NCBI RefSeq assembly: GCF_007970665.1
Contig: NZ_CP042430.1
Coordinates: 1,798,001 to 1,862,000, forward strand
Length of the DNA: 64,000 bases
Direction of reading: 5' to 3'
Origin: Baekduia soli
Lineage (GTDB): Bacteria > Actinomycetota > Thermoleophilia > Solirubrobacterales > Solirubrobacteraceae
The position numbers and the translations under genes were made by a program. Numbering within the stretch: the stretch's first letter is position 1; each line of letters opens with the position of its first letter. The notes beneath the pieces are model-generated. The model worked only from the letters and a program-made list of their open reading frames with translations, ran no database searches and was not told where the DNA came from. Shown piece by piece: positions 58,232 to 61,508 of this stretch.

Positions 58232-59383
58232 GTGGACCCCTGGATCGCCGCCCGCGCCACCGCCATCGCCGCACGTGCCGAGCGCGAGCTCGAGGCCCTC
58301 GTCGGCGTCTCGACCCCGTCGGGCGACGTCCGCGGCGCCCAGGAGGCCGCCGCCATCGCCGCGGCGCTCCTGCCCGACGGCGCCGAGGTCGAGCACGTGC
58401 CGTGCTCCTCGCCCGGCCACGCCCCCGACCTGGTGGCGCGCCTGAGGGGCACGGGACGCGGGCGCATCCTCCTGCTCGGTCACCTCGACACGGTCGTCGC
58501 CCACGACGGCCACCGTCCCCTGGAGCCCGACCCTGACGACGCCGACCGCCTGTTCGGGTCGGGGACCGTGGACATGAAGGGCGGCGACGTCCTGGCGCTC
58601 GGCGTCATGCGCGCGCTGGCCGCCGAGCCCGAGCGCTTCGCCGAGATCGCGCTGCTGCTCGTCGTCGACGAGGAGTGGCGCGTCGGCCCGTTCGCCCACG
58701 TGGAGCGGTTCGCGGGCTTCGACGCCTGCCTGTGCTTCGAGGCCGGCGAGCTCACCACCGGCGGCGAGGACGCGGTCGTCGTCAAGCGCAAGGCGGCGGG
58801 GACCGTCGAGGTGCTGGCCCAGGGCCGGTCGGCGCACTCGGGCTCGGCGCCCGACCGCGGCGTCAACGCCCTGCTGGCGCTCGCCGAGGCCGCCCGGGCC
58901 ATCGCCGGCTGCCACGATCCCCGCGGCCCCGAGCGGCTGACCGCCGTGCCGACCGTGCTGCACAGCGGCGACGCCTTCAACGTGGTCCCCGCCGAGGGCC
59001 GGCTCATCGCCGACGTCCGGGCCGACCGGCTCGAGGCCTTCGCCGCCGTGCTGGCCGCCGTGCCGGCGCAGGTCGGCGGCGCGACGCTGACGACGCGCCT
59101 GGCGCGCGAGTGGCCGGGGATGGACGCGCGCGCGGCGACGGGCCCGCTGCTCGAGCAGGCCGGGGCGCTGCTGGGGCGGCGCGTGGCCGGCGCGGCCCGC
59201 GGCGGCGCCAGCGATGCCAGCCACTTCGCCTCGGCGATCCCCCTGACCGTCGACGGCCTCGGCCCCCGCGGCGGGGCCGCGCACAACCCCGGGGAGTTCG
59301 TGCGGGTCTCGTCGCTGCGGACCCGCGCCGAGGTCGCGCTCGCCGTCGCGCTCGCGGCCCTGGATCCTGGAAATGGGGCGTGA
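58232..59383 (+). CDS. M20-family metallopeptidase (carboxypeptidase G2-like)
   Basis: This 383-residue dizinc peptidase or deacylase has the metal and catalytic residues in LLGHLDTVV near 89-97 (His, Asp), GSGTVDMKGGDVLAL near 109-123 (Asp), LLVVDEEWRVG near 142-152 (two Glu), CFEAGE near 168-173, and a late His in ASDASHFAS near 328-336. The dimerisation lid between about 175 and 290 includes GRSAHSGSAPDRGVNALL. It most resembles glutamate carboxypeptidases; the substrate is unknown. The GTG start is divergent from the peroxiredoxin, 20 bp apart. Confidence 0.87.
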   Translation: MDPWIAARATAIAARAERELEALVGVSTPSGDVRGAQEAAAIAAALLPDGAEVEHVPCSSPGHAPDLVARLRGTGRGRILLLGHLDTVVAHDGHRPLEPDPDDADRLFGSGTVDMKGGDVLALGVMRALAAEPERFAEIALLLVVDEEWRVGPFAHVERFAGFDACLCFEAGELTTGGEDAVVVKRKAAGTVEVLAQGRSAHSGSAPDRGVNALLALAEAARAIAGCHDPRGPERLTAVPTVLHSGDAFNVVPAEGRLIADVRADRLEAFAAVLAAVPAQVGGATLTTRLAREWPGMDARAATGPLLEQAGALLGRRVAGAARGGASDASHFASAIPLTVDGLGPRGGAAHNPGEFVRVSSLRTRAEVALAVALAALDPGNGA

Positions 59384-59409
59384 AGGTACGCATTCGGACG
59401 TCGTTATGA

Positions 59410-59438
59410 CGACATCCCGCCGCGCGCCTCGCTAAGCT
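59410..59438 (+). promoter_or_regulatory. probable promoter of the riboswitch transcript
   Basis: CGACAT (59410-59415) and TAAGCT (59433-59438) are 17 bp apart, placing transcription start near 59445, just where the riboswitch begins. Confidence 0.5.
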
Positions 59439-59439
59439 C

Positions 59440-59605
59440 ACGCGGTCGTTTCACCAGCCGAATCCCCGGCGGACGTCGTCGGGGAGCGGGGGACCCAATG
59501 GCCGGAACCATCCGGTCACGGGGCGAGTCGTCGCCAGCGTGCGACGTAGCGCCACTCTCTTGGCGCGAGCCCGACAGCTAACCCCGTAGGCGCCGCCAAA
59601 GAGAG
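59440..59605 (+). ncRNA. cyclic di-AMP riboswitch (ydaO/yuaA type)
   Basis: The conserved blocks of the ydaO aptamer occur in order: GCCGAATCCCCGG (59457-59469), GGAGCGGGGGACCCAA near 59482-59498, CGGGGCGAGTCG near 59519-59530 (counterpart of GGGGUGAAUC), and GAGCCCGACAGCTAACCCCG followed by TAGGCG near 59567-59592. In actinobacteria this element precedes cell-wall hydrolase genes, where c-di-AMP binding normally turns expression off; the gene that follows is exactly such a hydrolase. CTCTCTTGGCG (59555-59565) can pair with CGCCAAAGAGAG (59594-59605), which includes the ribosome binding site, giving a possible translational switch. Confidence 0.9.
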
Positions 59606-59615
59606 GGTTCCCCCG

Positions 59616-60695
59616 TTGTCGTCGTTGTCGTTCCGTTCGTCGTTCCTCGGTCTGGTGGCCGCCTTCGCGGCTGCCGCGGTGCTCCTCGTCCCCGCCGCCG
59701 CGGGCGCCGCCACCTCGGCCTCGAGCACCAGTTCGGCCGCTCTGGGCAAGAGCACCCTGCGCCGCGGCGACACCGGCGCCGCGGTCAAGGCGCTGCAGCG
59801 CCTGCTGACCCGGGCCGGGTTCAAGACCACCGCCGACGGCCAGTTCGGGTCCGGCACCGCGAAGGTCCTGCGCCGCTTCCAGCGCGCGGCCGACCTCAAG
59901 GCCACCGGCGTCGCCGACGCGGCCACCGTCAGCGCCCTGCGGCGCGCCACCAACGGCTCGGCGTCGCGCAACACCAACGGCGGGTTCGGCCTGCGCAGCG
60001 CCGGCGGGTCCCAGCACCTCGGCGACCGCATCCCGCTCCAGCAGGGCATGAGCGGCCACGACGTCCGGATCCTCCAGGACTTCCTCACCCGCGCCGGGTT
60101 CAAGACCGGCATCGACGGCGAGTTCGGGGCGGGCACCCTCAAGAGCGTCAAGCTCTTCGAGACCGACCGGCAGGTCGCCCAGGACGGGATCGTCGACGCC
60201 GCCGACATCGACCTCCTGCGCTCCCTGGTCGCCGGGGACGGTGGCGCCCCCGCCACGGCGGCCCAGCCCCCGCCGCTGGCGCCCGGCGACAAGGCCACGA
60301 TCGGCGCCGACGGCCTGGCGGTCGCCCCGGCCAGCGCGCCCGACCCGGTCAAGCAGATCATCGCCGCCGGCAACGAGATCGCCAAGACGCCCTACCACTA
60401 CGGCGGCGGGCACGGCACGTGGCAGGACACGGGCTACGACTGCTCGGGCTCGGTCTCCTACGCGCTGCATGGCGCGGGCCTGCTCGACCAGGCCCTGCCC
60501 TCCGGCGACTTCACCTCCTGGGGCGAGCCCGGCCCCGGCCAGTGGGTGACCCTGTACGCCAACGGCGGCCACATCTACATGATGGTGGCGGGCCTGCGCT
60601 ACGACACCAGCGGCCGCCAGCAGGACGGCACGCGCTGGCATGCCGACACCCGGTCGAGCAGCGGCTACACGGCCGTCCACCCGCCCGGCCTCTGA
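59616..60695 (+). CDS. secreted peptidoglycan hydrolase: two PG-binding domains plus NlpC/P60-like domain
   Basis: This 359-residue exported cell-wall enzyme has a signal peptide at 1-31 (LVAAFAAAAVLLVPAAAGA). PG_binding_1 repeats lie at about 48-110 (LRRGDTGAAVKALQRLLTRAGF) and 137-204 (LQQGMSGHDVRILQDFLTRAGF). A linker precedes a C-terminal NlpC/P60-like domain at about 245-359 with nucleophile Cys276 (GYDCSGSVSYAL) and His319 (GGHIYMMV). The TTG start is 8 nt after GAGAGGG; TTG 59625 is the alternative. Control by the c-di-AMP riboswitch upstream ties wall remodelling to osmotic signalling. Exact bond specificity is not readable. Confidence 0.88.
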   Translation: MSSLSFRSSFLGLVAAFAAAAVLLVPAAAGAATSASSTSSAALGKSTLRRGDTGAAVKALQRLLTRAGFKTTADGQFGSGTAKVLRRFQRAADLKATGVADAATVSALRRATNGSASRNTNGGFGLRSAGGSQHLGDRIPLQQGMSGHDVRILQDFLTRAGFKTGIDGEFGAGTLKSVKLFETDRQVAQDGIVDAADIDLLRSLVAGDGGAPATAAQPPPLAPGDKATIGADGLAVAPASAPDPVKQIIAAGNEIAKTPYHYGGGHGTWQDTGYDCSGSVSYALHGAGLLDQALPSGDFTSWGEPGPGQWVTLYANGGHIYMMVAGLRYDTSGRQQDGTRWHADTRSSSGYTAVHPPGL

Positions 60696-60726
60696 TCCGA
60701 AGGCTCCGCGCAGGGGTGCGTGGCGA

Positions 60727-60753
60727 CGGCGGGGGGCCCCGGGCCGCCCGCCG
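60727..60753 (+). terminator. GC-rich hairpin after the cell-wall hydrolase gene
   Basis: CGGCGGG (60727-60733) and CCCGCCG (60747-60753) are complementary, with further pairing possible inside. It lies 31 bp after the stop and has no T-run, so it would be a U-less terminator. Confidence 0.4.
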
Positions 60754-60797
60754 CCGACCTGCCGGCGCGCGGGGCCGGTGCAGTACAACACCGGTCC

Positions 60798-61508
60798 GTG
60801 CCGCCGCACCCCGAACGCCCGCCCGCGACCACCGACGAGGAGCTGCTCGGCACCAAGCGCCGCTCCATCGTCGCCACGCGCACCGAGTCCGAGCGCGTCG
60901 AGGTCATCGAGCACGAGCTGCGCACGGGCTTCGGCGCGCTGCGCGAGCTGGGTCCCGCCGTGTCGTTCTTCGGCTCGGCGCGCACGCCGCCCGAGGCCGA
61001 CGCCTACGCGAAGGCCCGCGAGACCGCACGCCGGCTGGGCGAGGCCGGCTTCGCGATCATCACGGGCGGCGGTCCCGGGATCATGGAGGCCGCCAACCGC
61101 GGCGCGCGCGACGCGGACGCCACGTCGGTCGGGCTGAACATCGAGCTGCCGTTCGAGCAGGCGGCCAATGCCTACCAGGACATCGAGCTGCGGTTCTCAT
61201 ACTTCTTCACCCGCAAGCTCATGTTCGTGCGCTACGCCACGGCGTTCGTGGTCATGCCCGGCGGCTTCGGGACGCTGGACGAGCTGTTCGAGGCGCTCGT
61301 CCTCGAGCAGGTCGACAAGATCCGCGACTTCCCCATCATCCTGTTCGGGACGGCGTTCTGGGCGGGCCTGCAGGCGTGGATCGTCGAGCGCCTGCTCGAC
61401 GAGGGCCTCATAGGCCCCGCCGACCCCGGGCTGCTCGTGGCCACCGACGATCCGGCCGAGGTCGTCAGGCTCGTCGAGGCGGCGCGGACGCGCCAGGAGG
61501 ACCCGTGA
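60798..61508 (+). CDS. LOG-family protein (cytokinin-activating / nucleotide 5'-monophosphate phosphoribohydrolase-like, TIGR00730 type)
   Basis: This 236-residue Rossmann-fold protein has signature motifs GGGPGIMEAANRGA near 92-105 and PGGFGTLDELFE near 154-165, plus VSFFGSARTPP near 55-65 at the nucleotide site. LOG proteins cleave ribose 5-phosphate from adenosine-type monophosphates, and many bacterial members are of unknown physiology. The start is taken as GTG 60798, since TACAAC (60784-60789) lies 8 nt upstream; the frame is open to GTG 60720, but those residues do not look conserved. The 3' end overlaps the convergent phospholipase D-like gene by 44 bp. Confidence 0.85.
   Translation: MPPHPERPPATTDEELLGTKRRSIVATRTESERVEVIEHELRTGFGALRELGPAVSFFGSARTPPEADAYAKARETARRLGEAGFAIITGGGPGIMEAANRGARDADATSVGLNIELPFEQAANAYQDIELRFSYFFTRKLMFVRYATAFVVMPGGFGTLDELFEALVLEQVDKIRDFPIILFGTAFWAGLQAWIVERLLDEGLIGPADPGLLVATDDPAEVVRLVEAARTRQEDP

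What the first reader, a model, noticed from the sequence alone, without database searches (positions are those of the whole stretch)
59440..59615. c-di-AMP riboswitch with a possible anti-Shine-Dalgarno arm
The aptamer blocks are clear, and the strand CTCTCTTGGCG inside the aptamer is complementary to CGCCAAAGAGAG at its 3' edge, which contains the ribosome binding site of the hydrolase. That would place the switch at translation rather than at a terminator: no terminator hairpin with a T-run lies between the aptamer and the TTG start.
Basis: partly seen in the sequence, partly recalled or inferred. Interest (0 to 1): 0.65.

Follow-up and report, generated by a model that had tools for sequence, protein, structure and literature searches.

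The report
c-di-AMP riboswitch hiding ribosome site
This is a genuine c-di-AMP riboswitch in front of a secreted cell-wall enzyme gene; the strand thought to be a special ribosome-site blocker is the riboswitch's own built-in pseudoknot, which in this bacterial class nearly always lies just before the start codon, so it is probably an ordinary translation OFF switch of a kind already reported in Corynebacterium.

Summary
The finding is real and well placed. RF00379 matches window 59446-59608 (+) at 70 bits (cut-off 38). No terminator lies downstream, and a TTG start at 59616 follows. The gene encodes a secreted-looking peptidoglycan-binding, NlpC/P60-like hydrolase.

The "anti-Shine-Dalgarno arm" is not a separate expression platform. 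It is the hairpin loop of the aptamer's own pseudoknot: CUCUCUU (59555-59561) pairs with AAGAGAG (59599-59605). The crystallised ydaO RNA has the matching loop and tail. Loop and tail covary in every taxonomic group tested, and orthologues in the window's genus show two compensatory changes.

In this class (Thermoleophilia) the start codon lies 0-20 nt after the pseudoknot in 102 of 116 loci, against 4 of 38 outside Actinomycetota and Bacillota. Terminators are almost absent.

Best explanation: c-di-AMP stabilises the pseudoknot, which covers the ribosome site and represses translation. C. glutamicum nlpC already has reporter evidence for translational control and a proposed pseudoknot. This is a new member of a known kind; the comparison extends that case to a whole class.

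The parts
59446..59608 (+). c-di-AMP riboswitch aptamer (RF00379), including the 3' pseudoknot tail
   Evidence: cmscan 70 bits, E 3.4e-14, model 1-134
59457..59459 (+). P1 5' strand GCC, pairs with 59589-59591 GGC (3 bp, with an A/G mismatch at the outer position)
   Evidence: Rfam alignment and sequence
59549..59566 (+). Hairpin GCGCCA-CUCUCU-UGGCGC whose loop is the 5' strand of the pseudoknot
   Evidence: Rfam structure line; coordinates
59555..59561 (+).
   Evidence: Complementarity and permutation test of loop-tail pairing
59599..59605 (+). Pseudoknot 3' strand AAGAGAG, overlapping the ribosome site
   Evidence: compensatory changes in L162 and L164
59603..59606 (+). SD-like GAGG, 9 nt before the start codon (weak match; three of its four bases lie in the pseudoknot)
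   Evidence: Sequence; SD overlap statistics for relatives
59616..60695 (+). Regulated gene: 359-aa secreted-looking peptidoglycan-binding, NlpC/P60-like hydrolase, TTG start
   Evidence: ORF, PF01471, weak NlpC/P60 matches in the PDB, start position shared by relatives

Best explanation
A translational OFF riboswitch for c-di-AMP. The aptamer folds on the leader and its hairpin loop (CUCUCUU) pairs with the purine tail (AAGAGAG) just downstream of P1, forming the class's built-in pseudoknot. In this gene, as in most relatives in its class, that tail overlaps the ribosome binding site, with the start codon about 10 nt further on. With c-di-AMP bound, the folded aptamer and pseudoknot hold the ribosome site closed and the hydrolase is not translated; when c-di-AMP falls, the tail is released. 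Shown here: family membership, pseudoknot covariation, overlap of the tail with the ribosome site, no terminator, a diadenylate cyclase gene in the genome. Inferred: ligand binding, the sign of the effect, and the level of control.
For: RF00379 70 bits. Loop-tail pairing beats all 5000 permutations in each of four groups. Within the genus the pair changes as CUCUCUU/AAGAGAG, CUCUCAU/AUGAGAG and CUCUAUU/AAUAGAG. Start codon 0-20 nt after the pseudoknot in 102 of 116 Thermoleophilia loci, SD-like match overlapping it in 71 of 94, terminator-like hairpin in 1 of 117. No terminator here. DAC domain gene present, 91.7 bits. Reporter evidence in C. glutamicum nlpC: transcript unchanged, protein reduced, only the first gene affected (PMC9960051).
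Against: The SD is weak (4 nt). Nested folding of this copy favours an 11-bp helix that hides the site without ligand, though that model cannot represent the pseudoknot or the ligand. Two copies in the same genome (L004, L005) show no clear pseudoknot. Streptomyces rpfA is described as terminating transcription (PMC10117811). No binding or expression data exist for this organism.
Confidence: 0.78

Rival explanations
1. Transcriptional control: the c-di-AMP-bound leader causes premature termination by a non-canonical or Rho-dependent route, perhaps as a consequence of blocked translation, as proposed for Streptomyces rpfA.
For: Streptomyces rpfA transcripts rise in a disA mutant and terminated transcripts are reported (PMC10117811; discussed in PMC9960051).
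Against: No terminator-like site here and in 1 of 117 class members; the start codon follows the aptamer at once, leaving little room for a terminator.
Confidence: 0.13
2. Strand exchange by the reader's 11-nt arm: CUCUCUUGGCG leaves its hairpin and pairs as a long nested helix with CGCCAAAGAGAG, and the choice between the two states is the switch.
For: Complementarity in this copy and perfectly in L162; the helix dominates nested folding of this copy.
Against: Stem invasion of 4 bp or more in 3.5% of relatives against 1.8% of swapped pairs; not kept uninterrupted in L159 or L164; both states hide the ribosome site.
Confidence: 0.05
3. A degenerate aptamer that no longer switches.
For: P1 is short (3 bp with an A/G mismatch) and the SD is weak.
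Against: 70 bits over the whole model; compensatory changes among congeners show that the pairing is maintained.
Confidence: 0.04

Closest known systems
c-di-AMP (ydaO/yuaA, kimA) riboswitch class, RF00379
   Same: Whole-model match, same hairpin and pseudoknot layout as the crystallised ydaO RNA whose sequence is quoted in PMC5393176.
   Different: The Bacillus members control an intrinsic terminator; here there is none and the start codon follows the pseudoknot directly.
C. glutamicum nlpC c-di-AMP riboswitch (PMC9960051)
   Same: Same class, same kind of target gene (NlpC/P60-type hydrolase), no terminator, loop pyrimidines complementary to the RBS; the authors suggest pseudoknot blocking of the RBS.
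   Different: Other organism; there the effect was measured, here it is inferred, with covariation added. Its authors frame CTCC/GGAG as a new contact; the comparison here identifies it with the class's general pseudoknot.
Streptomyces rpfA c-di-AMP riboswitch (PMC10117811)
   Same: Actinomycetota, several copies per genome in front of cell-wall hydrolases, no canonical terminator.
   Different: Described as ending transcription.
RBS-occluding pseudoknot riboswitches such as SAM-II and preQ1 (review PMC10907184)
   Same: Works alike: the RBS is one strand of a ligand-stabilised pseudoknot; the review names ydaO among translational docking switches.
   Different: Unrelated aptamers and ligands.

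Membership tests
RF00379 c-di-AMP riboswitch | Covariance-model score above the gathering cut-off | tested here: met
   70 bits against 38, model 1-134
RF00379 c-di-AMP riboswitch | Hairpin loop to 3' tail pseudoknot | tested here: met
   CUCUCUU/AAGAGAG; permutation test and compensatory changes in congeners
RF00379 c-di-AMP riboswitch | Binds c-di-AMP | not testable with these tools
   Needs probing or binding assay; a DAC domain gene is present
Translational (RBS-occluding) c-di-AMP riboswitch, C. glutamicum nlpC type | Pseudoknot tail overlaps the ribosome site, start codon close behind | tested here: met
   GAGG 59603-59606 overlaps tail 59599-59605; TTG 59616; class-wide pattern
Translational (RBS-occluding) c-di-AMP riboswitch, C. 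glutamicum nlpC type | No intrinsic terminator before the start codon | tested here: met
   0 found in 59200-60000
Translational (RBS-occluding) c-di-AMP riboswitch, C. glutamicum nlpC type | c-di-AMP lowers protein without lowering transcript | not testable with these tools
   Needs reporter and mRNA measurements
Terminator-type c-di-AMP riboswitch (Bacillus ydaO, kdp) | GC hairpin plus U-run between aptamer and start codon | tested here: not met

The most novel reading that the evidence does not exclude
In Thermoleophilia, and probably many other Actinomycetota, the c-di-AMP riboswitch has no separate expression platform: the general aptamer pseudoknot, whose tail strand is purine-rich in all groups, was taken over as the ribosome binding site, so one aptamer runs as a translational switch here and feeds a terminator elsewhere. 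Translational control would then be the default in this lineage and not a Corynebacterium exception.
Probability: 0.6. Interest if true: 0.45.

Novelty: new member of a known kind. Interest (0 to 1): 0.28.

Why it matters
The copy itself is ordinary. The comparison around it gives covariation support for a mechanism so far suggested for one Corynebacterium gene, for a class of bacteria (Thermoleophilia) that carries several such switches per genome, and it points to a direct test of the disagreement between translational (Corynebacterium) and terminating (Streptomyces) models in Actinomycetota.

Tried and rejected
Strand-exchange reading of the 11-nt arm: stem invasion is 3.5% against 1.8% in swapped pairs at 4 bp or more, and 12.4% against 8.8% at 3 bp or more. 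An earlier version of that test with a cruder pseudoknot definition gave less extension in true than in swapped pairs, 1.13 against 1.41 bp. Column-wise pair counting on a MAFFT alignment was dropped: the alignment has no gaps and the pseudoknot register shifts by a few columns, so a register-free permutation test was used. Nested folding cannot represent the pseudoknot. In one search the constrained runs that force P1 used a register off by one, and the run meant to reserve the pseudoknot strands gave the unconstrained fold; none of these is relied on. Automatic start-codon choice failed for L001 and L006, where the close start was read by eye, so counts of close starts are probably slightly low. 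The primary papers on ligand identity, crystal structures and Streptomyces rpfA are not held; reviews and papers that cite them were used. Streptomyces-like loci of the phylum search (L244 and similar) did not match my core pattern and were not analysed.

Full report
Observation. The window region 59440-59615 contains a full-length match to RF00379, the c-di-AMP (ydaO/yuaA) riboswitch, at 59446-59608 on the + strand, 70 bits against a gathering score of 38; it is the only Rfam family match over cut-off in the window. The element lies between an M20 peptidase gene ending at 59383 and a 359-aa frame starting with TTG at 59616. That frame encodes a secreted-looking protein (hydrophobic N-terminus, by eye) with PG_binding_1 domains (PF01471, 2.8e-26) and an NlpC/P60-like C-terminal domain (3pbi and LytE chains; best E 6e-4). 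No terminator-like site is present in 59200-60000.

What the arm is. The RF00379 structure places 59549-59566 (GCGCCA-CUCUCU-UGGCGC) as a hairpin. Its loop CUCUCUU pairs with AAGAGAG just 3' of P1. The ydaO RNA used for the crystal structures has the same layout, loop ACUCCUUCG and tail CGAAGGAG (sequence quoted in PMC5393176), and that paper discusses its pseudoknot; the assignment of these two stretches to it is mine, from complementarity. Only its first seven bases belong to it; TGGCG is part of the hairpin's 3' stem.

Covariation. I collected 237 loci: eight from the window's own genome, 109 more from genomes of its family and 120 from a pattern scan of GTDB genomes over many phyla; 224 distinct loci carried the core. 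The loop-tail helix score was compared with 5000 permutations of tails within each group: true pairs beat every permutation in Thermoleophilia (z 8.7), other Actinomycetota (3.9), Bacillota (7.1) and other phyla (10.0). In relatives of this very gene within the genus (tblastn 186-237 bits) the pair is CUCUCUU/AAGAGAG (L003, L159), CUCUCAU/AUGAGAG (L162) and CUCUAUU/AAUAGAG (L164): two compensatory changes, with the G-rich ribosome site after it kept.

Link to the ribosome site. Taking the longest frame after each aptamer, the start codon lies 0-20 nt after the pseudoknot in 102 of 116 Thermoleophilia loci, 12 of 15 other Actinomycetota, 16 of 31 Bacillota, and 4 of 38 in the remaining phyla (Fisher p 1.4e-18 for the first against the last). 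Where it is close, an SD-like match usually overlaps the pseudoknot (71 of 94 in Thermoleophilia). Terminator-like hairpins occur in 1 of 117, 0 of 15, 14 of 46 and 7 of 43 loci of the four groups, and close starts and terminators hardly ever occur together (1 of 134 loci with a close start). The pseudoknot exists in the groups with distant starts too, and its tail is 84-94% purine in every group, against 50-61% in the spacer before it. My reading is that the tail was suited to become a ribosome site and was used so in Actinomycetota and part of Bacillota. Group labels follow record titles and family membership; L123 was counted with other Actinomycetota although it is from the window's family (the same contig as L184). 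The pattern scan favours loci with a perfect core, so it is not an unbiased sample.

The longer arm. The additional pairing of the hairpin's 3' stem with CGCCA occurs in this copy (with a bulge) and perfectly in L162, but not uninterrupted in L159 or L164; over 113 relatives 3.5% show 4 bp or more, against 1.8% of swapped pairs. In nested folding it dominates the predicted fold of this copy and hides the ribosome site; in 80% of 95 relatives the nested pairing of the two pseudoknot strands is not favoured. It is best seen as incidental, or at most a local property of two species.

Mechanism. Committed explanation: c-di-AMP stabilises the aptamer and its pseudoknot; the pseudoknot tail overlaps the ribosome site; translation of the hydrolase is repressed at high c-di-AMP. 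Shown: membership, pairing by covariation, overlap, absence of a terminator, presence of a DAC-domain gene (91.7 bits). Inferred: binding, sign and level of control. The sign follows published OFF behaviour in Bacillus and Corynebacterium (PMC6488665; PMC9960051).

Novelty. Translational control by this class has reporter evidence for C. glutamicum nlpC, where the authors suggest that loop CTCC pairs with the RBS GGAG as a pseudoknot, and a 2024 review lists ydaO among riboswitches that occlude the RBS. Several copies per genome in front of cell-wall hydrolases are known in Streptomyces (seven in S. coelicolor). Nine matches here, eight over the cut-off, and every one of 61 genomes in the family having some, are in line with that. 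The finding is a new member of a known kind; what is added is the class-wide comparative support.

Limits. The SD is weak (GAGG). Two copies in the same genome, L004 and L005, lack a clear pseudoknot. Start codons were called mechanically. The primary structural and Streptomyces papers could not be read.

Noticed in passing
L004 (G000:C1:3592459-3592592, minus strand) and L005 (G000:C1:3452902-3453034, minus strand): Two copies in the window's genome score well (66 and 57 bits) and precede secreted-looking proteins, but their hairpin loop has no clear complement in the tail; how they would switch is unexplained.
   Followed up: partly
L267 (G000:C1:3527294-3527484, minus strand): A ninth, sub-cut-off match (27.4 bits) has an intact conserved core but a much enlarged pseudoknot hairpin and a strong AGGAGG further downstream, followed by a TTG-started secreted-looking frame; possibly a diverged copy.
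   Followed up: partly
L008 (G000:C1:1910311-1910478, minus strand): The pseudoknot tail GGAUGA contains an in-frame ATG, so the pairing may cover a start codon itself; TTG 14 nt further on is the alternative start.
   Followed up: no
L044, L049, L068, L075, L089, L090, L103, L125, L153 (Paenibacillus and Cohnella): These loci have a close GTG after an AAGAGAG-type tail that opens only a short frame, followed in several by a repeated GAAGCCACGAAAGAGTCCT-like stretch; perhaps a short leader peptide or a tandem element.
   Followed up: no
window 60720-61508: The next gene on the same strand encodes a possible lysine decarboxylase / SLOG-fold protein (PF03641), probably unrelated to the switch.
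   Followed up: no
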